64,000 nucleotides of DNA from Acholoe squamosa (Eukaryota > Annelida > Polychaeta > Phyllodocida > Polynoidae), in NCBI GenBank assembly GCA_949317995.1, contig OX439048.1, forward strand, positions 22,635,495 through 22,699,494, read 5' to 3'. The notes under the pieces are model-generated. The model did no database searches and was not told where the DNA came from. It worked only from the letters and a program-made list of their open reading frames with translations. Of this stretch, positions 5,320 to 57,164 are shown piece after piece. Made by a program: the position numbers and the translations under genes. The first letter of the stretch is position 1. Each line of letters opens with the position of its first letter.

Positions 5320-5599
5320 GTAAGTGTAAAATTGCGGGAGCATATTGCAGGCATATTGCCTCAAGGATGCTTTTGAGACGCACACAATTCTGGTGAGTAA
5401 TCGCCTTCTATAAAAAGAAATATAGCCCATTGTTTGTTTAATATGTGTACATGTCAAAGGGAAGGAATGAAATTTTTAGATACAATATGTTTCAAATAGA
5501 GCTATTTAGTGAGAAAATGCATGCAAACTCCTCAGGTATTTTTCCCAGTTTTTCTAAGGTCTAAAAAGATGTATATTGATCAATAACTGCACCTTTCAG

Positions 5600-5727: not shown

Positions 5728-6238
5728 GTATGTGTTCCGCTTTGGTGGCTTAACTGTTTATCATTGCATTTTATTTCTTGTTGAAATATTTTCAAGTAAA
5801 ACACATTCTTCTTGTATACAAATATGACTATGTTTGCACAAGTATTTGTGGCACAGTGTTGAACTTAGTATACTCCTGATTGGTCCCAGAACATTGCACT
5901 TTATCCTGAGAAATATGTTGTTATTGAAATGTTTTCTTCAATTGTTTTCTCACTTTTTAGAGCCATGTTAATTGGGGTATTGGATTATAACATAAGTGAT
6001 AACTCTGGCACACTACATTTAAGAATACAGAACTTCTTTTGAATATAAATGCAACCACTTGCAATAACTTGAATAAAATCTCCCTTGTTGTGCACACTCT
6101 GCAGGCCACTATCATATCTCAAAAAGGGTGAAGTGATTGGTTAATAAGATATACAAGAAATGGTTAACATACAGTGATGAGCAGATATAGGTGACATTAA
6201 AAGGAAATCAACACCGTCATGGTTCACACAATGTCATA

Positions 6239-22703: not shown

Positions 22704-25700
22704 TTAAGTAACAGCAGTCCGCCCGGCAATTCTGGGACTGCGTCTCACCTCTCTTCCCTTGTTGTTCAACTGAGATTCTCGAGAAGGTCCAGTAGAACGT
22801 GCCAACGTTTTCCCCCTACCTCGAGTTCTCCGTTCCGCCGAGACAATTTTCTCACGATTAGATTTTAAATTCGTGTCAGTTTCGACCTTTCGGGGTCGTC
22901 CTTTCTTTGGCTTTTTCTCATTCACCACTTTAGCAGGTCGGCCTCTTCTCCTTTTTGGGGCCGTACCCTTCATTTTCCTCGACAATTTGTTGGTCTTCAT
23001 CAGAATCTTCCTTCTTTTCATTCATCTGTTTGGAAATTTCGTCGCACTCAGAGTTGGCGGCATCTCGTCCCCTCCATCTCCTCAACCTACACACGTTAGA
23101 CTTATTCATATGGCCTGTAGCTAGACTCATAAGCATAACGGTGCTCTCAGATATAATTCGGGTGACCACATGAGGTCCGTCCCAGCTCGAGATCAATTTC
23201 TTGCACCTTAAAGGTTCATGCATCCTAAACACTCGGTCGCCCACGCTGAATTGTCGTGGCTTTAGGTGGGTGTTATACCCAACTTTCTGCCAATTCGCGT
23301 TCTTTAGTAGCTCGTTTCGAACTACTTCATAAGCTCTCTTAAATTGGTCTCGCAGAGATTCCACAAACATCACAGTACAAGGGGCTTCGGGGCTTACCCC
23401 TATAACACCATATACGAGATCGGCGGGCATTATAATGTCCTCCCCAAATACTAACAAATTCGGGGAGCAGTTGGTCGCGGCGTGCACAGTGCTATTATAA
23501 GCATGCACTACGAAGTCACATTGCTCGTCCCAGTCGTCCTGGCGAGAGTTTACCAAGGGTTTAAGGACTTGTATCAATGTTCGATTGAATCTTTCTACCT
23601 GGCCATCAGACTGTGGCCTGTATGGATTGGTTCGAGTTTTACAAATGGCCAAATAGTGGCACATTTCTTGCCACAGGTTGGACTCGAATTCTCGTCCCTG
23701 GTCGCTGTGCATCATTAATGGTGCACCGAGATGTAACACCCATCCCTTCACAAAGGCAATGGCGCAAGTGGCTGCCTTGTGGTCAGGTAAAGGATATACT
23801 CGAGTGTATTTGGTGTAGTAGTCGGTTACTACCATCATGCAAGTATTGCCCCGGGGTGTGGGCTCGATTCCGCTGATGATATCAATAGCTACCCGGGCGA
23901 ATCGAACTCCGAACAGCTCTTGCGCCAGGGGCATCTTTCCCATTCCTGGACCAGGTTTATTCCTGCCGCATTCGGGACAAGTCATCACCCATCTTATGAT
24001 GTCGTTATGCATTCCTGGCCAGTAGTACCTCCTGGCTAGGCGTTCTAAGGTCCTCTTCTTCCCGAAGTGTCCGCTCGTTTTATGCCCGTGGCAATAAAAC
24101 ATAATATCTCGTCTTAGTGACATAGGAATCACTATCTGTAAAACCTTGTCCTTGGTGGGACAGGTTTTCCATCGACACAGTAGACCGTCTCGAATTTCTA
24201 GCTCGGTCCATTGGGCTAGAAATTTGCGGGTATCTCTATCTTCGAGGGACAATGCCGGCCGTTCGGGCTTGGCATTCTTGTTCAGGTAACAAACCACTCT
24301 CTTGATAGCGGGATCATTTTGTTGGAAATGTAGGATGGTCTCTTCTGGCCATTCTATAACATTCTCCATGCTGGCGCTAGGCAACGGCATCGACTGTCTA
24401 GTTCGAACCGTTGCGACCACCGTGTTGTGAGCCCCGCAATCATCACAATCGATTTTCTGGCACTTTCTGATAGGCCTCCAGGAAAGGGCGTCTGCATTGA
24501 TATGCTTCGAGCCCGGTCTATGTTGGATCTGGCTATGCTCCAACCCAAATTCTGACAAGTGTGCCAGCCAACGGCCAATCATACCTTCGGCGTCCTTAAA
24601 ATTAAGTAGCCACCTTAGGGATGAGTGGTCAGTGCGGAGAGTAAAATCGGTACCCCATAGGAAGTGTCGAAACTTTTTAGTATACACCACTACAGCCAGT
24701 AACTCACGTTTGGTGGTGCAATAGTTTCGTTGTGCCCTATTCAGAGTGTTACTAGCAAAGGCGATTGGTACTTTCGACCCCGTCCTGGACCTGCAACAGG
24801 GCTGCACCAATACTATCATTGCTAGCGTCTGTGTCCAGAATGACATGATCATCCGCAGTTGGATATTTCAGTACTGGCGTGTTAGCAAACAAGTGTTTTA
24901 TTTGCTCGAAGGCTATGTCCTGTTCGTCTCCCCATGGGAAACGTTCCTTTGCCCGACCTGGGGTCCAATGTGCCAATATTTGTAAGGGGTAGCTTACTTT
25001 GGAGTAATTCGGCAGGAAGTCTCGATAGTATGAGCAGAAACCCAGGAAGGATCTTACCTCCTTCGCACATATGGGTTTCTGCCATTCGGGCACTGTCTGG
25101 AGTTTTTCAGGGTCGGCTTTTACGCCGTCTGGAGTTATTATTCGGCCGAGATATGTAATAGATGATTTAAATAAATTACATTTCTTTGCTTTTAATTTTA
25201 GCCCATTTGCTAAGATTCTCTTCAAGACTAGTTCGAGGTTGTTCATGCAATCCTCAAAAGTCTTTCCAAATACTATGACATCATCGAGGTACACCAGACA
25301 ACTCTTCCAAAGAAGGTCGCTCAGCATTTCCTCCATCATAGCTTCGAAAGTGGCCGGTGCATTGCACAGCCCAAAAGGTAAAACGTTGTACTGGAATAGG
25401 CCCATGTGGCTCGAGAAGGCTGTCTTCTCCATATCCTAAGGGTCCATCCCGATCTGCCAGTACCCAGATTGGAGGTCGAGGGTACAAAAGTATTTGTTCC
25501 CCCCCAATGAGTCTAAGGTCTCGTCTATCCTGGGTAAGGGATAGGAGTTTTTCTTTGTCAAGTCGTTCAGCTTTCTGTAATCGATGCAAAATCGAATAGA
25601 CCCATCCTTCTTCGTGGTCATGCACACAGGGCTAGACCAAGGGCTCGTGCTCGGCACTTTGACCCCTTTTTCCAGCTGTTTGAGAATTTGTTTCTCCGCC

Positions 25701-26954
25701 TCCACCTTCTTTTTCAGTGGTAACCTCCTATAGGGTATTTTGAAAGGCTTTGAATCACCAGTGTCAATCGTGTGTAGTACCTTGCTAGTGCGATCTACCG
25801 CGCCCCCGGTTTCCCGAAGGCATCGTTGTAGGTGGCAAGCAGGGCTCGAAGTCCCTCTTTTTCTGACTTTTTCCTCAGGGAAGAGTCGTTTACCAACTTC
25901 ATTAGGTCATCTGGTAGTCCCCGAATTGTCCCCGCGGGTAACTCAGTTCGAAATCGGGATTCCGAGATGTGTTCTATCAGGGACATATCACCGATTTTCT
26001 CATTCTTTCTCAGATACACAGGTTTCAAACCCCTGTTCATAATTGGGACTACTGTCCACGATCCACTTCCCACTAGAGTGTCAACTGAATCTAGCTGTAA
26101 GCTAGATAGTGCTTCGAAATTAGGTTCGAAGACAGCGTCCGAGCCTCGAAATGCATGGTTCGAGGAACACAAAACGTCACAAGCCGTCCCTGGCGGAATC
26201 TTTACTGTCTGTACCACGGTGGCTACCGAGGATACATGTCTCAATATGCATGGGATCTCGCAGTTGTAGGGTTGCCTTATCTTCAACATCCCAAATCGGG
26301 GGTCCAATACAGCACCGTACAAACTTGCGAAGTCCAGGCCAATTATCCCATCGTCACTTATCTCGGCTATAGTAGGGCTCATTACATACTCGTAGCCCCC
26401 CATCCCGATCTGTATGAAAGTCTTGCCAAAAGTCTGCATCTGGCTACTGTCGGCCGTGCAAGCATTAACCCCAACTGGTAGCGTTTCATGGTTGCCGGAC
26501 ACCAGACTGAAGAATTTTCTCGAGACACACGAATGGCTGGCACCTGTGTCAATCAAAAATTCCCCAGTCCGCCCCTTCACCGATACAGCAATATACCATC
26601 GTTTCCCCCCCAAAGGTGAGGAGTTCTGGGCGAATCGGAGTTGTTCTTTGGAATCACCGATCTCCCATCCGAAACCCTTCAAGAAGGTTACACACGGATG
26701 ATGCGGGGGAGGTGTGCCGCACTCACTCGCGTCAACTCTTCAACCCAACCTCCCTCTTCTTCGACGTAGGATTTCTCCCTCAGGTCCTGGCATACGTCTG
26801 CCCCTACCCCGTTGAAGCCCCCGGCCTGGGCTGGGGTGAGAGGATCCTTCTCACGTACCAGTCTCCCGGAAGGCATTGATTCCTGTACTAGCTCGGGTTC
26901 GCCAGCGGTGGCTTTTTGGCAGATTTTCGAATCACGGATCACATCCTTTGCCAT
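22704..26954 (-). pseudogene. pol: Gypsy-1 pol (PR-RT-RNaseH-INT, AT-hook tail), broken
   Basis: The polyprotein begins at ATG 26954, 14 nt after the gag stop. In order: an aspartic protease with DTGAS (block 26682-25795), reverse transcriptase with CIDYRKLN (block 25705-25436) and YLDD near 25281-25292 (block 25432-24752), RNase H with TDHSSLRWLL, an integrase zinc-binding region ending CPECGRNK, and an integrase core with D in VAIDII, D in HSDQGREF and E in SDGQVERFNR (block 24852-22930). A C-terminal tail follows with AT-hook-like motifs (RRRGRPAK, KKGRPRK; block 23021-22704). It is disabled by frameshifts near 26690, 25800, 24780 and 22960 and by an in-frame TAG at 25436-25438. Several shifts fall in G or A runs. 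Gypsy-2 encodes a close relative of the PR-RT part. Confidence 0.92.
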
Positions 26955-27581
26955 AGGTGTGACCCTCTTTAGTTTTCCTCCTCTTTTGTCTCTTCGATGT
27001 AATTAACTCGGGACAATACAGGTTTTCGGGCTGTACACTCATGAGCGTAGTGCCCCATTTCTTGGCAACGGTAGCACCGTAGTCTGCTACGATCTACTCT
27101 CCGACGTGCGGGTCTGTTGTACATTGTCTCGGAGAAAGTTTTCATGAAATCCTCCATCATTTTCTTCATGTCTAGAGATTCGGATGTAACAGTAGTTCTC
27201 GGTGGGGACATTACTGGTGTTCGAGCAACGGCCATCTCAGGTGCATGGCTGTCTAAGTTGGGCCTTGGGTCCACCCATTAGCTCGTCGGTTATATATCCG
27301 CCGAGGGATATATTTGCGTTTAACGTCTTTTTTAACCTGTACTGCAGAGATACTGCTGTCTTCCTCCTCGATTTCTATGATCTCGAAGTCGTTATCAGCC
27401 ATCTCAGTGTACGTCGGTTGGTGTATCCCCGACACAGAAGCCGTACTAGTATTAGTACTTGCGCAAACCTTAGTATTTGAGGCATTCAATTTTACCTTTC
27501 CCGCCATGAGGGTCTTTTTCACCATCCAGCATTCAATTCCCTCGAACAGGTCAGTTAATATAGGATTTTGTCCTTTCCAAG

Positions 27582-27833
27582 TGTAGGGGCAGTAAATCCC
27601 CGTACTTGGTGGAGATACCGAGTGGTCCCACCTTGTGAGGGGGATCTCTAGAGAGCTCGGTACCAGGTAATCACTGCCCCCTAGTGTGTGTATCATACCG
27701 ACCCAGGTGTAGTTGGAAGGTAGAGAATGTCAGGCCAGGGGAAGTAGCTCAGGGGTAGAGCTTCCGCTTCGAAGTTGAAGGGTCCCGGGTTCGAGTCCCG
27801 GTTTCTCCATGACATTTTCCGCTGACCACTACA
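27582..27833 (+). repeat. TRIM 5' LTR
   Basis: 252 bp, TGTAGGGGCAG at the start and GACCACTACA at the end. The first ~155 bp is not tRNA-related, then comes the tRNA-like unit, then a short tail TGACATTTTCCGCTGACC. Confidence 0.88.
27738..27809 (+). repeat. tRNA-like unit in TRIM 5' LTR
   Basis: 72 nt that folds as a tRNA: acceptor GGGGAAG with TTTCTCC, D stem GCTC/GAGC, T stem CCGGG/CCCGG with loop TTCGAGT. The A box (TAGCTCAGGGG) and B box (GGTTCGAGTCC) match pol III consensus. The anticodon stem is poorly paired here, and the anticodon by position would be CGA without the long variable arm of tRNA-Ser. The D arm resembles tRNA-Ala. It is therefore a tRNA-derived promoter-like unit, not a functional tRNA gene. 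Confidence 0.8.
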
Positions 27834-27886
27834 TTGGTGGAGAAACCGGCTGCTAGTGGATGGTGGTTGAAGCTGATGGGGAGGAG
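27834..27886 (+). promoter_or_regulatory. TRIM internal region: PBS and PPT
   Basis: The primer-binding site TGGTGGAGAAACCGG starts at 27835. It is complementary to the 3' end of the very tRNA-like unit held in the LTR (CCGGTTTCTCCA) plus CCA. The polypurine tract GATGGGGAGGAG ends at 27886. There is only about 25 nt between the two signals. Confidence 0.85.
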
Positions 27887-28137
27887 TGTAGGGGCAGTAA
27901 ATCCCCTACTTGGTGGAGATACCGAGTGGTCCCACCTTGTGAGGGGGATCTCTAGAGAGCTCGGTACCAGGTAATCACTGCCCCCTAGTGTGTTTATCAT
28001 ACCGATCCAGGTGTAGTTGGAAGGTAGAGAATGTCAGGCCAGGGGAAGTAGCTCAGGGGTAGAGCTTCCGCTTCGAAGTTGGAGGGTCCCGGGTTCGAGT
28101 CCCGGTTTCTCCATGACATTTTCCGCTGACCACTACA
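27887..28137 (+). repeat. TRIM 3' LTR
   Basis: 251 bp, nearly identical to the 5' LTR (one 1-bp indel and about three substitutions). The tRNA-like unit is at 28042-28113, where the anticodon stem pairs better (four of five positions including one G-U) than in the 5' copy. Confidence 0.88.
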
Positions 28138-38143: not shown

Positions 38144-38191
38144 TGATAACTGGAATAACAAAGATAAGAGCTTGATATTCTTACTCACTAT
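38144..38191. repeat. 48-bp direct repeat, left copy (LINE target duplication)
   Basis: Identical over 48 bp to 46371-46418. It sits directly before the T13 run that marks the LINE poly(A) end, as expected for a target-site duplication, though it is longer than usual. Confidence 0.75.
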
Positions 38192-38203
38192 TTTTTTTTT
38201 TTT

Positions 38204-38536
38204 GGACTAGCTCATTGCGTTAATGAACTGTCAGGTTCATTTATGTAACGCTATAGAGCCGACCATTTTTATTTATATTTCAAACAGATACCAAACAGTT
38301 GAAGTAAATATAGACTCCACATAATCAAACATATGTCATTATGTACAATAACAGTAAGGAAGCAGGCAAGTGTATCAAATCAATTACATAGTATTTGTTG
38401 AGATATATATCGATATGGCACAAGAACAAAATACAATCAAATGATCATCAATGATATAATATTATATGATGATGAAAATATGCTGATCACATAAATAATA
38501 TTTGGTGACTACACCGTCTCCATCAACCTTTGTTCC
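38204..38536 (-). other. LINE 3' UTR
   Basis: AT-rich, 333 bp between the ORF2 stop and the poly(A) run. Near the end the segments ATTGCGTTAATGAAC and GTTCATTTATGTAACG can pair, giving a possible 3' stem-loop of the kind a LINE RT may recognise. Confidence 0.55.
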
Positions 38537-41421
38537 TTAGTTATATCCAACCTTTAGCCTTGATCTGAGATTTTTTAACTTTTTAACCTCATTCTTAAAT
38601 TTAACTTTTGTAGTAGCCCTCTGAACCTCCTCAGATAGTAGGTCCCAGAGGACTACACCCCTGTACCATGGCGATCTTTTGTAATGGCGAGATATACTTC
38701 TTGGCAATTTAAAACATATCTTATTTTGCGATCTTGTATTATATGCATGACCATGATTTATCTGATCTTTGGATTTCTTATACATCAAACTTAAAAGTAA
38801 CATATCAAATCTTTGTTCTAATTTTTCCACTTTACAGATGACATGTAACTCATTAACACTATATTTAACAATATTACATCTAAGGCAAATTCTCAAAGCT
38901 CTATTCTGTAAACGTTGTAATGCCTTTAAACCTTCCTCATTACAACTAGTACTTATAAAAGAGCAATATTCAATAATCGGCCGGATGGTACAACAATATA
39001 TTTTTATGCTTTCTTCTTGTGTGAGATATTTCCTTAATTTAGCAAATCTAAATAATTTATTACAAATGTTTCTTTTAATAAGCTTAATTTGTTTGTCAAA
39101 ACTTAACTTACTGTCTACTGTAACTCCTAGGTAGGGGAAAAAACTTACAGTTTCTACTCTGGTACCATTTATTACAATATCTGTATCTGGACAATTTTTC
39201 AATTTGTGAGCACTACAAAACCACATAAATTTTGTTTTCTTTGGATTAACAGTCAACCTGTTGTGAGATACCCATGTCTTAAAGCGTTCAAGATCCTCAT
39301 TTAACACTCTCATTACATCTTGGGGTGTTTTTGCTGCATAATATAAAACAATGTCATCTGCATACATTTCAATTTTGCACTCGTTCAACTCTTTAATCAC
39401 ATCATCTATGTATAAAACAAACAACAGGGGGCCTAAAACAGACCCTTGTGGGACACCATATTTGATTTCAGATTCTTGAGAGACATTATTGCCATAACTA
39501 GTACTTTGTTTGCGGTTTTTAGATAACTATTAAACCAGAGAAAGTTATTTTTGCTGAAACCCAATTTGCTAATTTTTTCCAGAAGTCTAACATGAATTAC
39601 ACTGTCAAACGCTTTAGTAAAGTCAATAAATAGGGCCCCTGTTATTAAACCATCATTACGATACTCATATAGATCATTAACAAAGTCAAAGGTGGCATCA
39701 CCTGTACCACTACCTTTCTTGTAACCATATTGCTCATCTGAAAAATTATCGTGATCTTTCATGGCACAACTTAAATGATAATACATTATTTTTTCAATAA
39801 TTTTTGAGGGCATTGGCAATAGCGAAATAGGCCTCCAATTCTTAACTTGTGATAAATCTCCGTCTTTGGGTAATGGCTTGACCAATGCAGAAGCCCATTT
39901 GACAGGAAAACCACCACTATCAAAACTTCTCTGAACAAGAAAAGTAAATTGATCTAGCAGGCATATTATTGCACATTGTAGTATATCACCTCTGATCCCC
40001 TCTATTCCGGATGATTTATTTTTATCAATCTCTTTTACTGTATAATAGATATCCCAGGAATTAATCTTTATATTCGATTCAGAGAAAATTCCACCCTGAA
40101 TGATTTCCTCTATACTCACATTATTATCCATATCACACTGTACTTTACCAACAGAGGCCACATGTAAGTCTTTTCCAATATTGCAAAAGTATTGATTAAT
40201 ATATTCACAAGCAGTTTCGGATGGGACCTTAACACCATCTTCATGGTGCTTCATATCTGGATATATCTCAGACCCATTACCCTTAAACATGTTATTAATA
40301 TATTTCCAAAAACTCTTAGGATTTCCTCTACATTCATGTAATTCTTGCATAATACCACCAATTTGATTAGCTTTTATTTTTTTCCTAATTTTTCTCCTGC
40401 AATCTTTAATAGCTTGCTTCTCTTCATCACTTTTATTCACCTTATACAACCTTAACCACCCTTCCCTCTCAAAAACAAGATCCATTACTTCATCATCTAT
40501 CCAACTTTTTCTTGTTTTTTTAACTAATCTCTCAACAAAGGGATGATATTTATCCAGATACTGATTAATAGGTGTTAGGAACATGTCCCACAGCACATCA
40601 CTACTCAAATTTTTATCATAATACAATGTCCAATCACAAGATTGCAGGAAATCTTTGAAATTACTTTCTTTAAAATTCCTATAATCACGGCCCAAATAAG
40701 TTGTTTTAGTATACTTGTAATTCTCACGGCCCTTACAGCCAAATACAGGAATGTGATCAGAAATGAATGCTTCTACCGTACCTGCATCAGTAATGTTAAC
40801 ACAATTTGATAATACATTGTCAATACAAGTACCACTAAAGGGACGAGTAGCCTCATGTACCAGAATTTTCCATCCTAAATCTTTACATAATGACCTAAAA
40901 CTCTCACAGCTTGCATCAGTATCATCAAACATATTTAGATTAATATCACCTAATACCCAAGTCTCATGTCTCCCTTGATTATCATTATATTCAAATCCAG
41001 CTACCTTCTTTAGAAAAGTAAGAAAATTTGGTACATTGGTATTTGGTATTCTATAAATAGATACTATGAGCTGTTCTTTCTCACCCGGTAGACATAGCAT
41101 AATAGCAATACTTTCAAAATCAATCGATTGAATAGTCAAATCATTTACAATACTAATATATCGACATAAACCAGATCTACAACTAAGGCCTACTCCACCA
41201 CAATTCTTACCAATTCGATCATTTCTATACAAAATATGATCAGGTATATTTATAATTCCCTCTGGTGAAGCAGGCTTAAGCCAGGTTTCACATAAACAAA
41301 TTATATCACTACGTTTCAATAACTTGTATATCTCTTCATGTTTGTCTTCAAAACTACGACAATTAATTGAAGAAATCACCAGCCCCTTACTGTTGTTAAA
41401 TTCCTCAATACAAAGTACCAT
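38537..41421 (-). pseudogene. LINE ORF2: AP endonuclease + reverse transcriptase, one frameshift
   Basis: About 960 codons from ATG 41421. The N-terminal endonuclease shows SINCRS, an ETWL motif (CLCETWLKP), GDINLN and SDHIPVFG, matching the metal-binding and catalytic blocks of APE-type LINE endonucleases. The RT follows with NWRPISLLP, FIDFTKAFD and YADD (in MYADDIVLYY). The C-terminal domain ends near LRSRLKVGYN. The protein would nick the target DNA and copy the element RNA at the nick. The frame changes once, between the block ending 39433 and the block starting 39424. The other frame is open back to a T5 run at 39516-39520, so a one-base indel in that homopolymer is the probable cause and could even be a sequencing error. 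Otherwise the ORF is complete. Confidence 0.9.
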
Positions 41422-42536
41422 TTCAAATAATAATGGGATAATAATGATGCCATCTCATTAGGTAATATACAAGGTGAGATACATTAACAACAACAGAAAA
41501 GAAAGCAATGTCCAATACCAGTATCATGATATATACACATGTGAAAAAGCCTCAACAAAAGAACAACAAATAAATGACTAATTACAGAATATACAAATCC
41601 TCTTCCACAAATTATCCTCGTAGAAGGGGTGACTGATTATACCAGCTTACCTATGTCAGCTATGTGGCTAATCAGAGAAAAATCCCCCCCGACTTAGAAA
41701 CTCCTTGGCGACTTAAGATCTTATAACTGGGTATCGCTAGGGTTAATGATATTAAAGGACTGCAACAGTGACACTTAAGATTTTTAACCTAATTTAGAAT
41801 TAAAAAAGAAGAATTTAAGGCATTTTGTCTAATATCATAATTGATCCAAATTTAAAGAAGCAAAAACAATAGACAGGGGAATGTATTGGATTACTATTGA
41901 AACCAACCTGTGGATACATTGATTAAATTCCACTTTATTAAACAGCCAGAATCTCCATAATCACCAATTAGCAAGATAATGTATTTTAACCAAAGCATAG
42001 AAACCATCCTTGAGGTCTATGCACAGAACTCTAACTAGATAAGTACATGTATTATACCAAACTTCTACACACTACTGCAGTGACAGACTTAAAGGTAAAC
42101 ACTCCCTCATATGCATTACTATAAAAAAAAGTCTTGCATACAATGCTCAATGAATAGATAAACTCTTATCCTAACGATTTTAGGGTAAACAGTCCCTTAA
42201 TATATTAGATACTTACGATTACAGGATTAATTAATTAACATACAAGATTGATTGCTTGTCATAGATTAAGAGGTGATACACAGTAATGGCGCGGTTTCTA
42301 CACCTATTACTGATATCGACCTCAACCAATACATAACAATCAAATATATTCTCAGATTCACATTCTATTCTATTTCTATATAGATGCATATGTTATAGAG
42401 AGTATACATTATTGTTTGTAATGACACAGCAACTACACCTATTACATCGGGCCCATCCAGTTCTACAAGAATACAGTACTAAGTCTATGGTGACCCATAA
42501 AGAAAAGGGACTCTGTCGACTTACCACTATTTAACA
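41422..42536 (-). other. LINE inter-ORF region
   Basis: About 1.1 kb with no reading frame, which is long for a LINE. The phrase ACACCTATTAC occurs twice (near 42298 and 42434). I see no recognisable signal for ORF2 translation. Confidence 0.5.
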
Positions 42537-44738
42537 TTACAACACAATCAATGGCTTATTTCTCTCTTTCTCTCTAATCAGGCACCTGGTTGCCATGGTT
42601 ATCTTGCCATGTAGGTTCTGCCCCTTCACTCTACCCTGATCATATGCTTCAGAACTGTATACAAACCCACCACCCCAGATCATATCCCTACAACCTTCCA
42701 CTAGGACGGTTGAGCCTGTTCCTAGAAGTGATTTTCTTGGCCCCTCACATTGATCATAGTTGGCACTAATGAGTGCCTTCATATATTTTTGTGAGACTGT
42801 GTGCCAGTAATGGCCTGGTGGTGCTTTGTAATGCTTACATTTGTTTTTGATTTTCTTGGCACTGGTAATTTTCATGATGTCTGAGGCAAGCCTGTGGTAA
42901 CCTAACTCTCTCAATTTACAATAGAAATAACCCTGCTCCACACTACAGAACTCCATGGTTTGACCAAGGACATCAGCTTTAAATGTGCATGGGTACCAGT
43001 TGCTTAAGAAGCTGTTCTTGCCCCTGTAGATCAGCCCAGCTTTGGTCTGCCTTTGGTGAACTTCAGGATTTTGTTCATCATCTTCACCATCATCATCTTC
43101 ATCGTCAGTACTAATAGATCCTGGAGAGCTCATCCCTATAACCTTATCTTTACTGCCATTTACACCAGAAGCATCAACTGTGGTAGGCTTCTTGAGTGGA
43201 GAGCTCACAGCTTTACTACTAGCAGTATCCAGCTTATGTTCATTCTTCTCAGCCTCTACTTCTTGGCTAGCAGTGACACTTACTGGGTTGTGTTTATGAG
43301 AAGGTTTATTTATGAGATCAGGAAGTGTGAGAGACTCATTGACCTCATGAAGTCTTGTATTTGGGAAGTAGCTACCATCGATAACTATTCCTGACTCAAC
43401 CAGTTTGGGTTTGAACCCCTTTTGTATTGCTAGGCCACATACCCTTCTCTTCTGGTCTCTAATTTCTTTAGGCTCATCGTGCTGCACCCAGACTTGGTCT
43501 TCTTTTACGGGGGTTCTAAGCTTCCACTTGTTGTCTAATACAGATCTTTTAATTCTCATGTTGGAAAGACACACTTTAATCGGTGCCTTCCAACCATTAT
43601 TGGTGCGCTTAATGTCTAAGATGTCATTCCAAGGATCATAGACAACTCCCATGGCAACACATAGACCATCAAATATTTCATATAGGTTTTCACCATACTG
43701 GTAGTGTATACCTTTAATTATGAGATTGCGCTCTAGGGCTGGTTGAGTGTGCTTCACTCCACTCAATTGCTTGACAACACCAGCACACATACTTAATACA
43801 TTACGAGTTTCCTCTTTAGTACTAAGGCTATAGTTGGCTTGACCTAAATCTGATACATTTAGTTGTTTTGCAATTAGGCCATCTATTGTTATTTGCTGTG
43901 CTTTCACCTGTTCTCTCAGAGTATCTATTTCCTCCAGTTTCTCATTTAGGAAGGAATCATCACGAGGGGCCATTTCTTGTAGTTTTTTAGATACCACATC
44001 CTCAACAAGGCTATCTAAGTCAAGCTCATCTAACAGCTGATCTTTCAGTAGGTCAGTGTCAATTGGTTTGTGTGTATTCAGCCTTTGATTAATAGTGTCA
44101 ATATCTGTTCTCAAACCTGCCTGAGTATTAGCACACCTTTGCATGTCCTTATTGACCACCTCTTTGTAGTCATCTAATTGACCACTTAATCCACAAGCAT
44201 ACTCATGATGGCTTTTACAAGTGGACCCAATAGCTTTCATTTCCTCCTGTATTGACTTAATATTCTGTTCATGAGTGTTAATAAGGTTTGTATTACTAGT
44301 TACTTGCTCCTTATGTACTTTTAGGCTAGAACTGAGGTCAGTAATACAATTTCCTAAGTTGGTGTTCATATTAGCAATCATTTGTGCCAATGCCTCAATA
44401 GTATTAACACCTTCTGGATTGCTATTAACCTCAGTGCATACCCTCTCAGTAGAAGGTACTGGTGGGGGTGGGGGTACATAATTACCAACAACATTGGGTC
44501 TGATCACTCCTTGACTTACACCACCCCCAAGCAAATAATCCACTGAATAATTGGTAGGGCTTTTATCCAGACTAATTTTCTTTGGAATCTGACCTTGAGT
44601 TGGACTACCCTTACCTGATGAATCAATAGATCGTGTTCTTTTCCTAGAACTAGGAGTTCCATCCATGTGAAAGCACTTGTTTGGTGTGTCATTTAAATAC
44701 TCCATAGTGATACCACTGACTGTTGGGACTACTTTCAT
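42537..44738 (-). CDS. LINE ORF1 with C-terminal NADAR (YbiA-like) domain
   Basis: Intact frame of 733 codons from the first ATG at 44738. The frame is open further upstream, but without ATG. Domains, numbered from 44789: basic and Pro-rich N-terminus, coiled coil about 120-310, an RRM-like segment about 353-440 (RNLIIKGIHYQYGENLYEIF), an acidic Ser-rich linker 555-580 (STDDEDDDGEDDE), then a NADAR domain 585-747. The NADAR call rests on FLSNWYPCTF, the SVEQGYF helix with its conserved Glu (about 618), TSAKKIK, LLGTGSTVLVEGCRDMIWGGG with the conserved Trp (about 705), and GQNLHGKITMATR. These match E. coli YbiA block by block. NADAR enzymes hydrolyse N-glycosidic bonds of ADP-ribose-type substrates, and some remove ADP-ribose from guanine in DNA. 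The first part fits a nucleic-acid-binding LINE ORF1 protein. The enzyme domain in this position is unusual. All key blocks appear intact, so activity is possible. Confidence 0.88.
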   Translation of the reverse strand: MKVVPTVSGITMEYLNDTPNKCFHMDGTPSSRKRTRSIDSSGKGSPTQGQIPKKISLDKSPTNYSVDYLLGGGVSQGVIRPNVVGNYVPPPPPVPSTERVCTEVNSNPEGVNTIEALAQMIANMNTNLGNCITDLSSSLKVHKEQVTSNTNLINTHEQNIKSIQEEMKAIGSTCKSHHEYACGLSGQLDDYKEVVNKDMQRCANTQAGLRTDIDTINQRLNTHKPIDTDLLKDQLLDELDLDSLVEDVVSKKLQEMAPRDDSFLNEKLEEIDTLREQVKAQQITIDGLIAKQLNVSDLGQANYSLSTKEETRNVLSMCAGVVKQLSGVKHTQPALERNLIIKGIHYQYGENLYEIFDGLCVAMGVVYDPWNDILDIKRTNNGWKAPIKVCLSNMRIKRSVLDNKWKLRTPVKEDQVWVQHDEPKEIRDQKRRVCGLAIQKGFKPKLVESGIVIDGSYFPNTRLHEVNESLTLPDLINKPSHKHNPVSVTASQEVEAEKNEHKLDTASSKAVSSPLKKPTTVDASGVNGSKDKVIGMSSPGSISTDDEDDDGEDDEQNPEVHQRQTKAGLIYRGKNSFLSNWYPCTFKADVLGQTMEFCSVEQGYFYCKLRELGYHRLASDIMKITSAKKIKNKCKHYKAPPGHYWHTVSQKYMKALISANYDQCEGPRKSLLGTGSTVLVEGCRDMIWGGGFVYSSEAYDQGRVKGQNLHGKITMATRCLIREKERNKPLIVL

Positions 44739-44932
44739 TTTGGATTTCAAGTAAAACACACAAAAACCACAGAATAATGAGTAATCCACAGGTGAATCAT
44801 GAAATCCAACAATCCTTAAAGGTTCACAGGTAGCTTATGCTACTCTGAGACAATCCTTGAGGCATACAGTGTCCTTGATATAGTCCAATAATGTCAAAAA
44901 CCCAGCGAGCGGTGATCGGCAATTACATAAAC

Positions 44933-44998
44933 ATAGCCACTAGTCATATGATATTTCTCATATGACAACTTGATCATACACATATCTCTACTATGACA
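44933..44998. repeat. 66-bp repeat B, copy inside LINE 5' region
   Basis: Identical to 46417-46482, which lies outside the LINE just after its right target duplication. It contains the small palindrome GTCATATGA-TATTTC-TCATATGAC. Confidence 0.9.
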
Positions 44999-45141: not shown

Positions 45142-45350
45142 CAGTGAGGTCTACACATCAGTGAGGTACCCCACACGTCAATGAGGTCTCCCACATGTCA
45201 GTGAGGTCTCCCACATGTCAGTGAGGTCTCCCAAATGTCAGTGAGGTCTCCCACATGTCAGTGAGGTATCCCATACATCAGTGAGGTATCCCATACATCA
45301 GTGAGGTCTTCCACACATCAGTGAGGTCTCAGTGAGGTCACTCAACCATC
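45142..45350. repeat. 20-bp tandem repeat in LINE 5' region
   Basis: About ten copies of GTGAGGTCTCCCACATGTCA with a few substitutions. Tandem arrays in LINE 5' regions can act as promoter units, but nothing here proves it. Confidence 0.88.
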
Positions 45351-45403: not shown

Positions 45404-45586
45404 ATGAGTGACACCATAATTACTAGTACCACTATGGATGAAATAGCATCAAACCTAAACCAAGTAAAAGGTAAAGTCATGCAGTGTATGGCACACCAGA
45501 GGGTTGCTTATATAGACAGTCTAGATGAGTTAAGAGAGCAACATAGGCAAGAGCTAGAAGAGAAAGACAAGAGAATCTCAACATGA
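45404..45586 (+). CDS. Antisense small ORF-a in LINE 5' region, unknown
   Basis: Sixty codons from ATG 45404 to TGA 45586 on the strand opposite to the LINE ORFs. The C-terminal half (SLDELREQHRQELEEKDKR) is a strong coiled-coil candidate. Its stop overlaps the start of ORF-b as ATGA. No family is recognised. It could be made as a separate peptide, or joined to ORF-b by a -1 frameshift or after a one-base indel. Confidence 0.45.
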   Translation: MSDTIITSTTMDEIASNLNQVKGKVMQCMAHQRVAYIDSLDELREQHRQELEEKDKRIST

Positions 45587-46215
45587 AAATTGCTGAGATA
45601 ATGGGCTCATTGTGGATCAACTGTATAGCAGACACAATTGCAACCACAAGGGAGGGTGATAAGCAGACTACAACCCTAGATGCACCCACCAACATGCAAA
45701 AAACCATCAATGTAGATCCCACAGGCAGATACAGAGGTAAACATTATAACCCTGACTACAAGAAGAAGAAACCTAAAGCCTCTAGAAAGAGCCATGGTAC
45801 AAACACATCTTTGGTTAACTACAGGGACATGGACAAAAGCATAGACAATGTCCCTGACTATAAAACCTGTTGTCTCTGTGGCAAATACAGAGAGTACCCT
45901 AACAGCAGTACTAACACAACCACTGCCACAGACCCCAGGGGCATATACAAAGGCAAGCATTATGACCCTGACTATATACTAAAGAAGAAGCTTGGAGTTT
46001 GTAAAGGTCATGACATCAGCTATACAGGCCAACACGACAACCCCAGCAGTGATACCAACACTACTCAGGCCATTCCCACAGCCAGGCCCAAAGGAACCAG
46101 CACTACCAAGAAAAGAAAAAGCTCCAAATCTGTGGGGGCCACAAGAAAGGTCACAAGGACCAGCAAGGCCACTCCAAAACCTGGATTACATGGCCGATGG
46201 GCAGGTATACTGTGA
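45583..46215 (+). CDS. Antisense ORF-b in LINE 5' region, GKHY.PDY repeats, unknown
   Basis: An intact 210-codon frame on the + strand that starts inside the stop of ORF-a. It is basic, and it contains two copies of a motif about 70 residues apart: GRYRGKHYNPDYKKKK and GIYKGKHYDPDYILKKK. Between them is a Cys cluster (KTCCLCGK). The C-terminus is Lys/Arg/Thr-rich (KKRKSSKS), like a nuclear localisation signal. The internal duplication with conserved residues, in an element whose other ORFs are intact, suggests a real protein. I do not recognise a family. Its placement recalls antisense ORF0 of primate L1, but there is no sequence relation that I can see. Confidence 0.5.
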   Translation: MKIAEIMGSLWINCIADTIATTREGDKQTTTLDAPTNMQKTINVDPTGRYRGKHYNPDYKKKKPKASRKSHGTNTSLVNYRDMDKSIDNVPDYKTCCLCGKYREYPNSSTNTTTATDPRGIYKGKHYDPDYILKKKLGVCKGHDISYTGQHDNPSSDTNTTQAIPTARPKGTSTTKKRKSSKSVGATRKVTRTSKATPKPGLHGRWAGIL

Positions 46216-46370: not shown

Positions 46371-46418
46371 TGATAACTGGAATAACAAAGATAAGAGCTT
46401 GATATTCTTACTCACTAT
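46371..46418. repeat. 48-bp direct repeat, right copy (LINE target duplication)
   Basis: Identical to 38144-38191. It runs directly into the outer copy of repeat B, sharing two bases with it. Confidence 0.75.
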
Positions 46419-46482
46419 AGCCACTAGTCATATGATATTTCTCATATGACAACTTGATCATACACATATCTCTACTATGACA
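46417..46482. repeat. 66-bp repeat B, copy outside the LINE
   Basis: Identical to 44933-44998. Downstream sequences of the two copies differ. Confidence 0.9.
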
Positions 46483-51742: not shown

Positions 51743-54252
51743 ATCTATGTGCTCCACAATCAGTACAATCCGGATTATCACATTTCCGAATTGGTATTTG
51801 AGACAAAGCATCAGCATTTAAATGCTTAACTCCGGGTCTATGCTGAATCTGGTGATGTTCAAGCCCATATTCAGATAAGTGGGCTAGTCATCGACCTAAC
51901 ATGCCTTCAGCATCTCGGAAGTTCAATAACCATCTTAAAGAGGAATGATCCGTAGGTAAAGTAAAGTTCGTCCCCCATTAAAAAATGTTTGAACTTCTTT
52001 GTATATACAACTACTGCTAACACTTCTCTTTTGGTCGTGCAGTAATTGCGCTGAGTTCTACTCAGTGTGTTGCTGGCAAAGGCAATTGGTACCTCTCTCC
52101 CATTTTGGACTTGCGAGAGAGCTGCGCCAATGCTGTCGTTACTAGCATCCGTATCCAGTATGAAATGATCCGTCTCATTCGGATATTGCAATACGGGAGT
52201 ACTCGTGAACAGATCTTTCAGCTTTTGAAAAGCAGATTCCTGTTCATGCGTCCAAGGAAATTTTTCCTTGGTACTTCCTGGAGTCCAGTTAGCTATTACT
52301 TGTAATGGGTAACTGACTCTAGAATAATTCGGAATAAATTCCCTGTAATAGGAACAGAATCCTAAAAATGATCTCACCTCTTTGGATGTTTTAGGTCTAT
52401 TCCAATTCATTACTGACTTGATTTTATCGGGATCAGCTTTTATTCCTTCATCAGAGATGATGCGGCCCAAATAATTTATGGACTTTCTAAACACATGACA
52501 TTTTTTAGGTTTCAATTTGAGACCATTAGAAATAATATGTTCTAATACCAATCTAAGATTATTAGAACATTCTTCGAATGTTTTTCCCAAGACTATTACA
52601 TCGTCAAGGTATACGAGACATCTTTTCCATAATAAATCACTTAATATAGTTTCCATCATTGCTTCAAATGTAGCGGGTGCATTGCACAGGCCAAACGGCA
52701 TTACATTATATTGGAATAGTCCAATATGACTCGAAAATGCTGTTTTCTCCATATCGGATGGATTCATTCCCACTTGCCAATATCCTGATTGCATGTCAAG
52801 GGTACAAAACCAACTGTTACCTCCTAAGGAGTCGATGGTTTTGTCTATTCTCGGTAATGGATACAAATTCTTTTTCGTTACTCCATTTAACTTCCTGTAG
52901 TCTATGCAAAAGCGTATAGTACCATCTTTTTTTGTTACCATACATACAGGACTACTCCATGGACTATTGGATGGGACTATTACATCCTGATCCAACATCT
53001 TGTTTATTTCCTCTTCAGCTACTCTTTTCTTTGCTAAAGGTAACTGCCTATACGGTATTTTAAAGGGTTCTGCATCTCCAGTATCTATTTTGTGTACTAC
53101 CTTATTTGTCATACCGAGTTTTTCACCAGGTTTGGCAAAGGCAGTTCTATACTGACAGAGCAATTCATAAAAATCTTTCCGATGTTCCGGATTTTCTAAT
53201 GAAGTTTCTTCATACAACTTTAACAAGTCATCCGAAATTTCATCATCTTCTGTTACCTTTCGTAAGTTTAACTTTCTATCCGTTACAGTTTCCGAAAGGG
53301 TCACGTTTCCAAAAACTTGTCCCTTTTTTAGGTAGATAGTAGTGTTTCCAGTATTGGAAACAGGTACTACCGACCAGGATGCATTTGCTACTATAGTGTC
53401 TACAGAAGTTAATCCGATACTTGACAAAGTAACTACATCCGGTTCTATCACTGCAGGCTTATTGCGCATTGCAGGATCACTTCTAACAAGCACATCACAG
53501 GCTACACCCATGGGAATTCGCACAGTGTGTGCAACACTAGCCATACTGCTTACTTGCCTTAGCACGCACCTAACCTTTACAGGATACGGGTATTTCACAC
53601 TCAACACTCCTGATTGTGGTTCTAAAACCACCCCATACAGGGATGCGAAATCCAACCCGAGTATCCCTTCATCTGCTATATCCACAACGGTGGCACTCAT
53701 GACATAGTCATGTATTCCATCCAATTGCAATTTCACACAAGTTCTTCCATACGTTTGCATGGTACTGCCATCGGCCGTTTGAGCATTTCCTCCCGATCTG
53801 AGAGTATCGTGCTCATTCGGAATAAGATCGTAGAACTTCTTGGAGATACAGGAGTGGCTAGCACCCGTATCCATAAGAAACTCGGCAGACCTTCCGTTAA
53901 CAGTGAGGCAAACATACCACCGCCTTCCGTTTAGCACAGAGGGCGTGTCCGTGACGATTGGGACGTCATTGTTCACACCTGGGGTCAATCCACATCCTTT
54001 CAGGTATTCCAGACAAGGATGACCCGGGGGTAGGTGGGCACTACCAACCCTGGCTAAAAAATAGCCACCTACCTCGTTACTGATATCGGGTTTCCTCTGT
54101 GCTCCCTGGGCACCTGTCATATCAGCTTCCCTAACCTTCCGTGTGTCTACAACCACCCCGGTGTTAGGCAAGTTTGCTACTTCATGCGAACTGTCGTTAC
54201 GGATGGTGATATTATGGCAAGATTTGTCACTGGGATCCCCTTCTCTGCCCAT
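51743..54252 (-). pseudogene. pol: Gypsy-2 pol, truncated (PR-RT-RNaseH)
   Basis: An uninterrupted frame runs from ATG 54252 to 51907, 781 codons. Protease DTGAS is at residues 128-132 in the context FLMDTGASHSC. RT follows with SSPVCMVTKKDG, CIDYRKLN and YLDD at about residue 547, then the RNase H beginning (ILDTDASNDSIGAAL). A frameshift near 51970 throws the end out of frame. RNase H sequence continues in another frame to the CDNPDCTDCGAH-like segment at about 51743, where the element ends. The ATG lies 14 nt after the gag stop, exactly as in Gypsy-1. Confidence 0.92.
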
Positions 54253-54266
54253 AGGGGGACCCCTCC

Positions 54267-57164
54267 TTAGTTTTCCTCCGCTATTATACCAGAGACACTT
54301 TCCTGTCTACGAGGGACAGGTTTCTCAGCCATACATTCGGATGCATAGTGTCCTAATTTCTGACATCTGAAACATCTCCTCTGGGATTTATCAACCCGAG
54401 GTCTTTTCAGAGCCTCTGTCAATCCGGCTATCAATGTCTCTACCAAATTCGTTGGAGCAGCCGTGGCTGCTACGGTAGGAGCGACTGTAGCTGTATTACC
54501 TCCTTGATTAGATCCGGAAGCTATTTTATTAGCAACGGACCCTCCTCTTCCTTTCGGATGAACTTTCCTATACCGTTTCTGACGGTAATACTTTCCAGCT
54601 ACCTGGACTGACCCAATATATTCTCCATTTTCATCGGAGACATATTCATCTTCCTGGTCTGCCTCCTGCAAATCAACTGGGGCCAGTTGGGAAGTTTCAT
54701 ATACTTGAGCAGGGGAACCTCCGTATTGCAATGGAGCTGCTCGTACCGGGTTAGGTCCTAGACCCACCAACCTTTTCTTCATATTGTGTCCGTCGATTGA
54801 TATAAAGAGATCACTGAAGGATGTATAATCCTTCCAAGAATCCCAAACTACTTGTTTGTGATCCGGATCCCGCAATCCACTGTAGAATTGTGTAAATAAT
54901 TCTTGCAGATAGCAGTCATCATCATGAGCCCAATTCGAACGTGCCTTGGATAGCAAGTCCTGTAGCTCCAAACCAAAGACTTTATGAGATTCTTTAGGTT
55001 TTTGTGTCCTCTTCTTAAAGCTTACCCATGGATCTTCTCTAACGATCGAACCAAATAGGTACGCGGCACACTCGACCAATTGATCATAGGTGCAGTATAT
55101 TCCATATGCTGCTCTCCATTGGTTGAGGGCTACTTTTCCACCTTTATTCAACCAACAGATCAAGTAAGGCAGAGCTTCTTCTTTTGTCCAACCACTACAG
55201 TTGACTTCATCGACAAAAGCCTGATACCTATCCTTCCATGGATCATTCGAATCATATGGAGGGGTTATCCTTGCCTGTCTACGAGCCGGATTATTACATC
55301 CTCGCAGTCTGTCTGCTTCTCGCATGCTCCAGTTCATGACTTCCATGCCGTCTGCTCACTTCCGGTAGCAGTCAATGCCCAGATTTTGGATACATTGGCT
55401 TCTATCAAAGATGTTTTGCATCCCTGCAGGCATGGAAGTTCTCCTGTTTGGCTTTCTGCCATCTCCTCCCGATCCTGATCCTCCGGATCCGGATCCACCA
55501 GGACCACCTGGGGGATTACCTCCAGGTGGACCATTGTTGGGGTAATTCCCGGACGGACCGTTAGGATACCCACCTCCATAACCAGCATTTCCAGTTGTTC
55601 CAGAAGATGTATACCTGGGATAGGAATTATTTTGATTCCCTCCCTGGTTATACCTATTCCCATAATGGTAGTTACTTCCTCCAGCTGGATTATAGTTATT
55701 ACTATATCCATGAGGAGTTGTTCTTGGTAAATATGTACCCCCTACCACATTGGGTTGTGGAGGATTCAGTCTAGGGAATCGTCCACCATTCGGTGCATTG
55801 TTCTGACCCGAGGGCGGGTTAGGCAATCTTGCACCTGCTGGTGTACTATGTCCGGGTTGAGAAAAATACGAAGGTGACGTAAGTAAATTTCTCACTGGTC
55901 CCGGTGCCTGTGGTTGAGCTACTGGTGAAGTGTTACTTCCACTATCTGTATTAACCTGAGCCCGTCTAGTTTTATGACTCAGATCCGGTATAGGTGGAGC
56001 CGGACCTACAACCGTATCAAGCGCGCAAGCCTGAGGTGTAGGTACATTACTAGTGGATCCTTTGTTAGTTGCCCCTTGTGGACAAGTACTATTCTGGATA
56101 CCTATTCCGCTGGATGCGGAATGATCTGTTTTTTTATAAATTCCGGATACTACATTTTTATCCGCCCCATCAGTAACAAATGGGTTGTATCTGTCGGGCT
56201 TTACATCCTGGGATGTATTTGCCACCATTGTAGATACCACATTTGGATCTATAGTACCTATAGTCAATTGTGCAGCTTTCACATATTTATCTAGGGTCAG
56301 TGCAGTATTCTGCAGTTCCTGAAGCTCATTCGTGAGTTTCTGTCTGTCTTCTTTCAGTTGTTTATTATAGGCTATAATGCCCATCCGGATAGTTTCATTG
56401 TCTTCAGCTTGTTCACTGCACTGAAGTTTCAATTTCTCTAATTCGTTTTGATATTGGCTTATTTCGGATTTGTACTAAGCCTTATCAAGACATAATTGGT
56501 CATTCGTATCTATGTATGTCTGGATACGAGTGTGTCTATTGTCATATTCTTTATTGAATGACTTCCTCATTTTTTGAAGTTTTCTTTCTTCATTTTCTAA
56601 TTCTCTCATATATTCACTTTTTCTGGTTTCGAATTCGTTTCTCATACCGATTAAGTCTTCTTCTAGATGGAGTTTTTCGTTGATTACTTCATCTTTCGCT
56701 TTGACCAAGGTATTCAAATTCTCGTTCAAAGTAACATAGGTGTCGTTTAACAACATGACATCCGGTTGTTTAAATTCTTCACCTTCCGGTACCGCATATG
56801 TTACATCGCCGTCTATGGCGCTGTAATCTAGAATCGGTAGTCCGGGTCTGGGTATACTGTATGGTAATTTTCCAAACGTAACCCTTTTTGGCATGGGTGC
56901 CGGATGTTCTGGATTAGTGCTTCCACCAACTTCGAACATCGAATTACTTAATTCGTCAACAAGTGATTGTTGACTCATCAAATTACTCTTTCTCTGTATG
57001 GATTGTTCCCTCCGTACAGAGTCCGGTATGTTCTCTTCACTATCCATCTTATAGTGAGGTTCGGGATCTCTCCAAGATGCAGCGTCTACATCTTGTGAGT
57101 TCGAATGGGTATGGATCACCAATGATCCATTGCCATTCTCCTGGGCAGTTGATTGCCAACCCAT
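54267..57164 (-). pseudogene. gag: Gypsy-2 gag, two in-frame stops
   Basis: One register of about 965 codons runs from ATG 57164 to TAA 54267, broken by a stop after 56475 and a TGA after 55356. The first third has a long coiled coil (about residues 150-340), then comes a Pro/Asn/Gly/Tyr-rich disordered middle with NYNPAGGSNYHYGNRYNQGG-like composition. The capsid-like region (GLRDPDHKQVVWDSWKD) is homologous to Gypsy-1 gag, and a CCHC zinc knuckle (CFRCQKLGHYASEC) lies at about 54330-54371. Unlike Gypsy-1, no insertion interrupts it, so it is a useful reference for the TRIM insertion site. Confidence 0.88.

What the first reader, a model, noticed from the sequence alone, without database searches (positions are those of the whole stretch)
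42537..44738. LINE ORF1 protein carrying a NADAR (YbiA-like) ADP-ribose-processing domain
Sequence shows: one intact frame joins a coiled coil, an RRM-like segment, an acidic linker and a C-terminal ~160-residue block that matches YbiA/NADAR motif by motif (SVEQGYF with the key Glu, VEGCRDMIWGGG with the key Trp, GQNLHGKITMATR). Known: NADAR proteins act on ADP-ribose-type N-glycosidic bonds, and some reverse guanine ADP-ribosylation and serve as partners of DarT toxins. Inference: the retrotransposon may carry its own enzyme to undo host ADP-ribosylation of its RNA or cDNA, or to process a nucleotide signal used in defence. I know of no standard LINE ORF1 with this domain, but I cannot search.
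Basis: partly seen in the sequence, partly recalled or inferred. Interest (0 to 1): 0.9.

Follow-up and report, generated by a model that had tools for sequence, protein, structure and literature searches.

The report
Jumping-gene protein with ADP-ribose enzyme domain
In this animal genome, LINE jumping genes present in near-identical copies have a NADAR domain, a type of enzyme known to strip ADP-ribose from nucleic acid bases, built into the protein that is thought to coat the element's RNA, which suggests that they counter or exploit ADP-ribose chemistry in their host.

Summary

It is not a one-off: 19 of 66 match rows to this ORF1 in the genome are full length, 12 of them at >=98% identity, the window included. 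In 18 of the 20 top-scoring NADAR loci, NADAR precedes a same-strand RT match, in very divergent LINE lineages including an L1-group one. Family-A NADAR dN/dS is about 0.1 in the 4 of 6 usable pairs; both catalytic glutamates are kept in 24 of 24 distinct LINE NADARs.

The fusion is already in print, in one sentence, for oyster Tx1 LINEs (PMC12477816). New here: a carrier without a strong L1-type ORF2 match, breadth, apparent ORF1-module exchange, selection and active-site data. Best reading: an ORF1p-borne ADP-ribosyl-guanine hydrolase in the retrotransposon RNP; activity, substrate and host counterpart are inferred.

The parts
38192..44932 (-). Inferred extent of the LINE insertion (6,741 bp)
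   Evidence: Left flank 38144-38191 and right flank 44933-44998 match, end to end with a 2-base overlap, one uninterrupted stretch 46371-46482 of the same window at 100%; inferred from this one site, not checked on other copies
44739..44932 (-). Presumed 5' untranslated region
   Evidence: Between the inferred 5' end and the ATG of ORF1
42537..44738 (-). ORF1, 733 aa plus stop: coiled coil - RRM - CTD - acidic linker - NADAR
   Evidence: Open frame
43764..44414 (-). Coiled-coil region, residues about 109-325
   Evidence: Long helices in the model; low pLDDT over much of it
43344..43742 (-). RRM-CTD of LINE-1 ORF1p type, residues about 333-465
   Evidence: Model; Foldseek best match 2ykp human LINE-1 ORF1p E 2.1e-06
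43029..43301 (-). Acidic/low-complexity linker, residues about 480-570
   Evidence: Seen in the translation
42576..43019 (-). NADAR domain, residues 574-721; Glu601, Lys608, Trp645, Glu681, Asp685, Trp688 at positions of known ADP-ribose contacts
   Evidence: Pfam E 6.2e-21; model and fold search; residue table
41422..42536 (-). 1.1-kb spacer between ORF1 and ORF2 with no long frame and no match to the SGNH-like ORFs found at this place in some related LINEs
   Evidence: Three frames printed; tblastn at E<=0.01, no match
39433..41421 (-). ORF2 5' part: endonuclease (Pfam match just under its cut-off) and first part of the reverse transcriptase
   Evidence: PF00078 1.8e-13; PF03372 5.4e-05, 23.5 bits against cut-off 24.5
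38537..39424 (-). ORF2 3' part: rest of the reverse transcriptase and C-terminus, in another frame (this copy's ORF2 is frame-broken)
   Evidence: PF00078 4.6e-11, profile 129-205; frames
38204..38536 (-). Presumed 3' untranslated region
   Evidence: Between ORF2 stop and A-tract
38191..38203 (-). A-tract (read as T on the + strand) at the 3' end; its last base may belong to the flank
   Evidence: Sequence

Best explanation
A LINE retrotransposon whose ORF1 protein is a LINE-1-type RNA-coating protein (coiled coil, RRM, CTD) with a YbiA-type NADAR domain at its C-terminus. Shown here: the fusion, its presence in other copies and in several LINE lineages of this genome, purifying selection on the NADAR domain of the window's family, and conservation of the catalytic residues. 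Inferred: the domain is an active N-glycosidase that is carried within the element's ribonucleoprotein and removes ADP-ribose from guanine (or a similar base) of the element's RNA or cDNA, so that a host ADP-ribosyltransferase cannot block reverse transcription or mark the RNP for defence.
Against: No activity, expression or substrate was tested. Arg at the R79 position is lost in 24 of 24 LINE NADARs (K in the 4 of family A; D, N or H elsewhere) and Trp at W133 is lost in 7 of 7 group-B sequences, so the pocket has changed in at least some carriers; group C has Arg for K50 (5 of 5), a change that in a bacterial NADAR left in-vitro activity but no rescue of cells (PMC11543638). A relative in the protein database, P0002, has Ser at D130. 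No host guanine ADP-ribosyltransferase was found: the Scabin-like family gave nothing in this genome, but its controls were silent too, so this is uninformative. dS is near saturation in family A, and dN/dS shows constraint, not which function is constrained.
Confidence: 0.42

Rival explanations
1. The NADAR domain is an active enzyme but acts on small molecules: it degrades ADP-ribose-type signals, NAD-derived by-products or damaged nucleotides near the RNP, rather than cleaning the element's own nucleic acid.
For: Proposed for phage NADARs; NADARs also cleave riboflavin-pathway intermediates (PMC9503650, passages). Changed pyrophosphate contacts (R79, R93 positions) would fit a different ligand, though the two standalone genomic NADARs also lack R93.
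Against: Fusion to an RNA-binding-type ORF1p places it on RNA or cDNA, which a small-molecule enzyme would not need.
Confidence: 0.22
2. The NADAR fold has been kept as a binding or assembly domain (for RNA ends, NAD-capped RNA or a host RNP) and catalysis is dispensable.
For: W133 is lost in 7 of 7 group-B sequences. A nematode trans-splicing paper with many mentions of a NADAR domain links an snRNP to the cap-binding complex (PMC9303266; seen only as search listing and start of abstract). SGNH-like units accompany NADAR in several of these LINEs and some lack the usual block-I serine (sequences; motif recalled).
Against: E43 and E125 are invariant in 24 of 24 distinct LINE NADARs, although the five non-A LINE NADARs aligned share only 26-32% identity with the window's domain.
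Confidence: 0.22
3. The fusion is an accident of this copy: a LINE that captured a host NADAR exon, or an artefact joining two genes.
For: Standalone NADAR frames exist in the genome (L031, L032).
Against: 11 other rows at >=98% identity over the whole ORF1, and 6 rows at 56-67%, have the same full length; NADAR precedes a same-strand RT match in 18 of the 20 other loci read; LINE NADARs of groups A, B, D and L028 are separated from the two standalone ones with support 100/98.
Confidence: 0.01
4. LINE NADARs were acquired several times independently instead of once.
For: In the tree the group-C pair lies outside the other LINE NADARs, beside P0003 (86/56); Gypsy elements of Ectocarpus have NADARs of apparently bacterial source (PMC12477816).
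Against: Keeping all 15 LINE rows together is not rejected, p-AU 0.38; the program warns that the C placement joins long branches; C and B share homologous RRM-CTD (E 3e-09) and an ORF1 match running through the NADAR (2.56e-26 for L036-L045, 2.91e-25 for L036-L041).
Confidence: 0.3

Closest known systems
NADAR-like ORF1 of Tx1 LINEs in the Pacific oyster (PMC12477816, one sentence; passages read)
   Same: NADAR domain in a LINE ORF1 protein of an animal
   Different: Those carriers are called Tx1 (L1 group, recalled); the 5' part of the window's ORF2 has only a weak L1 match (182 residues, E 1.8e-04) whereas a group-C ORF2 of the same genome has a strong one (576 residues, 4.1e-74). The passages I read give no copy, selection, active-site or exchange analysis; the supplement with their alignment was not read.
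Ectocarpus Gypsy elements with N-terminal NADAR in Pol (PMC12477816)
   Same: Retroelement with YbiA-type NADAR
   Different: LTR element, Pol-encoded, brown alga; its NADARs are said to retrieve almost only bacterial hits
LINE type II ORF1p (human LINE-1, some CR1/L2; PMC4120745, passages)
   Same: Coiled coil - RRM - CTD; best fold match
   Different: Types I-IV as described there hold RRM, CCHC, PHD or esterase domains and V is unclassified; the words NADAR and DUF1768 do not occur in its main text
SGNH-esterase ORF1p of CR1/RTEX LINEs (PMC3905857, passages)
   Same: Enzyme-type domain on a LINE ORF1p
   Different: Another enzyme family, called there unique among ORF1ps in having an enzymatic function. 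In related LINEs here NADAR and SGNH-like units occur together
Phytophthora nicotianae NADAR (8bau) and E. coli YbiA (2b3w)
   Same: Fold; with 8bau also the catalytic Glu pair, Lys, Asp and two Trp
   Different: Standalone enzymes; the window has Lys and Ser at the R79 and R93 positions and is one residue shorter between E125 and W133
DarT1-NADAR toxin-antitoxin system (BC4488 NADAR subfamily)
   Same: NADAR as eraser of guanine ADP-ribosylation
   Different: Window domain has the YbiA-type Glu, not the BC4488 Asp, and the frames on either side show no ADP-ribosyltransferase match

Membership tests
NADAR (PF08719) | Significant match to the family profile over most of its length | tested here: met
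   6.2e-21, profile positions 9-162 of 163
NADAR (PF08719) | NADAR fold | tested here: met
NADAR (PF08719) | Catalytic and ADP-ribose-binding residues named in PMC11543638 | tested here: met
   6 of 8 identical, one K for R, one S for R; the positions reported as functionally important (E43, K50, E125 equivalents) are present
NADAR (PF08719) | N-glycosidase activity on guanine-ADP-ribose | not testable with these tools
   needs an enzyme assay
YbiA subfamily of NADAR | Glu at the E125 position (Asp in the BC4488/DarT1 subfamily), as stated in PMC11543638 | tested here: met
   Glu681
LINE type II ORF1p | Coiled coil, RRM and CTD with LINE-1 ORF1p fold | tested here: met
   Ten of ten Foldseek matches at E<=0.001 are human LINE-1 ORF1p; the coiled-coil part of the model is weak
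LINE type II ORF1p | Followed by an EN-RT ORF2 on the same strand | tested here: met
   Minus-strand ORF2, RVT_1 split over two frames, EN match just under cut-off; same-strand RT match after NADAR in 18 of 20 other loci
Tx1 / L1-group LINE (published NADAR carriers) | ORF2 closest to L1 ORF2p | tested here: inconclusive
   Window ORF2 (5' part only) matches L1 at 1.8e-04 and R2 at 0.0023, against 4.1e-74 for a group-C ORF2; no Tx1 reference sequence was at hand
CR1 / RTEX-type LINE | RT phylogeny with reference CR1 and RTEX elements | not tested
   No reference sequences at hand; only similarity to group B, 25-27% over about 635 residues, members of which have SGNH-like ORFs
DarT1-NADAR toxin-antitoxin | Partner ADP-ribosyltransferase encoded beside NADAR | tested here: not met
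   Frames on both sides (ORF2 pieces; 45583-46215) have no ART match; 13 of the 19 window frames of 170 aa or more were scanned in all

The most novel reading that the evidence does not exclude
An arms race over guanine ADP-ribosylation: this animal lays ADP-ribose on guanines of foreign or retroelement nucleic acid (as extracts of six edible clams are reported to do to DNA, one through the enzyme CARP-1), and its LINEs answered by fusing a guanine-ADP-ribose eraser to their RNA-coating protein, then passing that ORF1-NADAR module between distantly related LINE lineages.
Probability: 0.12. Interest if true: 0.92.

Novelty: new variant of a known kind. Interest (0 to 1): 0.62.

Why it matters
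If the domain is active, LINE ORF1 proteins have a second enzyme type besides the SGNH esterase, which would point to ADP-ribosylation of nucleic acids as a host barrier to retrotransposition in animals; my one search on that theme showed no description of it. It would give a natural setting for eukaryotic NADARs, whose physiological roles are called poorly understood (abstract of PMC11125620), and a possible reason for the guanine-modifying enzymes of shellfish. It also bears on how ORF1 modules move: what looks like one ORF1-NADAR unit is attached, within one genome, to ORF2s as different as an L1-group one and ones that are not nearest to L1.

Tried and rejected
One-off capture or artefact: rejected by copies and other loci. 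DarT-like operon: no ART match in the neighbouring frames. SGNH-like unit in the window's spacer: none found.

Relatives elsewhere: protein searches with the whole ORF1 (7,993 candidates scored, none at E<=0.001) and with residues 555-733 among proteins of similar whole length (119 candidates, none) found no fused relative. The NADAR piece alone found 2 of 42 candidates, P0002 (52%) and P0003 (32%). Viral contigs: 6 stretches for the window NADAR and 63 for the family-A alignment, none a relative. So no fused relative outside this genome was seen; to my understanding these collections hold few animal genomes.

Host identity: not established. The mollusc haemocyanin family search was empty with silent controls, the Scabin-like one likewise. 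That the animal is a bivalve is a guess from genome size, about 18 large contigs by their numbers, and the oyster precedent.

ORF2 clade: PDB sequence comparison separates group C (L1) and puts D nearer L1, but cannot place A or B (R2 6.8e-14, L1 2.2e-12). L041 and L036 ORF1 bodies have no PDB sequence match at E<=0.01. RRM-CTD of the window against a group-C one is not significant (E 1.2); against a group-B one it is (1e-06).

Literature: NADAR with retrotransposon (mostly author names), NADAR with ORF1 and LINE, NADAR domain with transposable elements, NADAR domain, YbiA with retrotransposon, DUF1768, ORF1 with esterase, CARP-1, LINE-1 with ADP-ribosylation. In these listings only PMC12477816 was seen to report NADAR in a LINE ORF1. 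The paper I recall as having named NADAR (2012) is not held, so I could not check whether it mentions transposons.

Full report

THE ELEMENT. Downstream on the same strand, after a 1.1-kb spacer, are an endonuclease-RT frame (41421-39433) and its continuation in another frame (39424-38537), the RVT_1 match being split over both; this copy's ORF2 is therefore broken while ORF1 is intact. The endonuclease match is just under Pfam's cut-off. A 13-base A-tract lies at 38191-38203. The flanks 38144-38191 and 44933-44998 match end to end an uninterrupted stretch at 46371-46482 of the window, which places the insertion at about 38192-44932 with no long target-site duplication; this is an inference from one site.

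COPIES. The genome held for the window has 1.48 Gb in 63 contigs. A search with the ORF1 protein scored 61 of 2,355 candidates and gave 66 match rows. Nineteen rows are full length (query start at 7 or less, end at 724 or more): 12 at 98% identity or more including the window itself, one at 89%, four at 65-67% and two at 56%; 12 of the 19 have no stop. The other 47 rows are partial, and I cannot tell truncation from frame breaks in them. A NADAR-family search scored 150 of 3,224 candidates, all 150 above the Pfam cut-off and 143 of 150 without stops by my count; these are the best-scoring ones and include none of the 19 full-length rows of the window's family.

OTHER LINE LINEAGES. I read the top 20 of those 150 with flanks. 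Two (L031, L032) are standalone NADAR frames in which none of the window's queries matched; their NADAR is shown by Pfam. In the other 18 the NADAR is followed on the same strand by a match to the RT-bearing part of the window's ORF2. By frames and BLAST I group them so. A, the window's family. B (L034, L036, L038, L042, L043, L044, and by ORF2 similarity L033 and L035): ORF1 with coiled coil-RRM-CTD-NADAR; in the five loci whose middle frames I compared (L034, L036, L038, L042, L044) one or two SGNH-like ORFs follow, that of L044 in two pieces; the five ORF2s compared are 43-69% identical within the group and 25-27% to A. C (L041, L045, and by RT match L037 and L046): coiled coil-RRM-CTD-NADAR followed by an ORF2 that, in the one tested, matches human L1 ORF2p over 576 residues at 4.1e-74 (L045). 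D (L039, L040, L047-L050): coiled coil-NADAR-SGNH-like in one frame with no RRM that I could see by eye, and an ORF2 of up to 1,167 aa, nearest to L1 in the one tested (L047, 1e-26 against 2e-18 for R2). Group B's ORF2 is no nearer to L1 (2.2e-12) than to R2 (6.8e-14; L038). A further locus, L028, has NADAR followed by a frame that by eye resembles the window's endonuclease. The SGNH-like ORFs match Pfam only below the curated cut-off (3.7e-05 at best; three of the five middle frames scanned have no match); they are tied together by BLAST.

MODULE EXCHANGE. ORF2s of A, B, C and D are very different from one another (BLAST), yet ORF1 of B and C align through RRM, CTD and NADAR (2.56e-26, L036-L045; 2.91e-25, L036-L041), and RRM-CTD alone matches at 3e-09. 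The window's RRM-CTD matches B (1e-06) but not C (1.2). The economical reading is that an ORF1-NADAR module was passed between LINE lineages, as horizontal acquisition of whole ORF1s has been proposed between CR1 and L2 (PMC4120745, passages). In a tree of 53 NADARs (15 LINE rows, among which I counted P0002 although its context is unknown; 2 standalone genomic; 19 bacterial, P0003 counted so by me; 17 from viral contigs; 18 of 80 loci and 17 of 80, chosen by hand), 13 of 15 LINE rows (A with P0002, B, D, L028) stand apart from the rest at 100/98 and the two C rows join P0003 at 86/56. The bootstrap had not settled, and the program warns of long branches meeting for A with L028, for D and for C. 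One clade of all 15 is not rejected, p-AU 0.38. References were found by similarity to the standalone type, so close cellular relatives of the LINE type may be missing.

SELECTION AND ACTIVE SITE. NADAR codons of the window, L051, L052 and L053 give dN/dS of 0.103, 0.085, 0.108 and 0.083 for four pairs, with dS 2.4-3.2; window-L051 cannot be estimated (synonymous saturation) and L052-L053 is too close (0.80 on 1% divergence). In group B three of 21 pairs could be estimated (0.232, 0.273, and 0.557 for the close pair L003-L005, both with stops); groups C and D are too young to say much (0.096-0.416; 0.044-1.37 where defined). With the 8bau residue numbers of PMC11543638 (passages), E43, E125, D130 and W89 are kept in 24 of 24 distinct LINE NADARs (A 4, B 7, C 5, D 7, L028; identical rows dropped, P0002 not counted), K50 is K in 18 and R in 6, W133 is kept in 17 of 24 (lost in all 7 of group B), R79 in 0 of 24 (K in the 4 of A) and R93 in 0 of 24; the two standalone NADARs also lack R93, and P0002 has Ser at D130. 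Several of the 24 are nearly identical, so they are not 24 independent observations. The pattern says constrained enzyme with altered phosphate contacts, not a relic.

MECHANISM. NADARs of two subfamilies remove ADP-ribose from guanine in DNA (PMC11543638, passages). NADARs in RNA-virus polyproteins have been read as counter-defence against host ADP-ribosylation of macromolecules (PMC9503650, passages). Guanine-N2 ADP-ribosylating activity was reported in six edible clams, with CARP-1 cloned from one (PMC11209040, passages), and the NADAR paper itself notes that erasure of CARP-1 marks is assumed, not tested. From this I infer, without test, an eraser riding on the LINE RNP. The link to clams is speculative: the host species is not identified here, and a Scabin-like search was empty with silent controls.

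NOVELTY. A 2025 study of Ectocarpus transposons reports a NADAR in Gypsy Pol and notes NADAR-like domains in ORF1 of several oyster Tx1 LINEs, suggesting RNA processing (PMC12477816, passages). The fusion is thus already published in outline. I saw no other report of it in the listings of searches. What I add is a carrier whose ORF2 is not clearly of the L1 group, breadth across LINE lineages in one genome, evidence for near-identical copies and purifying selection, the active-site survey and the SGNH-like companions. I rate it a new variant of a known kind.

Noticed in passing
L036:4470-5267 and 5386-6117 (+); L038:4576-5217 and 3825-4586 (-): Tandem SGNH/GDSL-like ORFs between ORF1-NADAR and ORF2; the block-I region reads SDKRG, TDRRG, GDRLA or the like, so the usual serine seems lost (motif from recall), whereas the SGNH-like tail of group-D ORF1 (L039) reads GNSNARG.
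   Followed up: partly
L031 and L032 (G000:C17:9901769-9902218, C14:682108-682554): Standalone NADAR frames, 184 and 169 bits; the first is up to 59% identical to bacterial (Paenibacillus, Cohnella) NADARs among the 80 loci listed and both lie among bacterial and viral ones in the tree; possible old horizontal transfer.
   Followed up: partly
window 45142-45330: Tandem array of a 20-base unit, 9.6 copies, about 210 bases beyond the inferred 5' end of the LINE.
   Followed up: no
window 45583-46215 (+): 210-aa frame with internal repeats (YRGKHYNPDY-like) and no Pfam match at E<=0.001.
   Followed up: no
window 27580-28137: Two copies of a 254-base segment at 98.4%, each containing a tRNA match (27738-27809, 28042-28113).
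   Followed up: no
window 22930-26682 and 51907-55346 (-): Two Gypsy-like regions: the first with protease, RNase H and integrase matches, the second with protease, RT, RNase H and zinc-knuckle matches, 68% alike in DNA over 1.3 kb.
   Followed up: no
P0002: 184-aa protein with source 'ena' and no name, 52% identical to the window's NADAR and grouping inside family A, with Ser at the D130 position; its own context is unknown.
   Followed up: no
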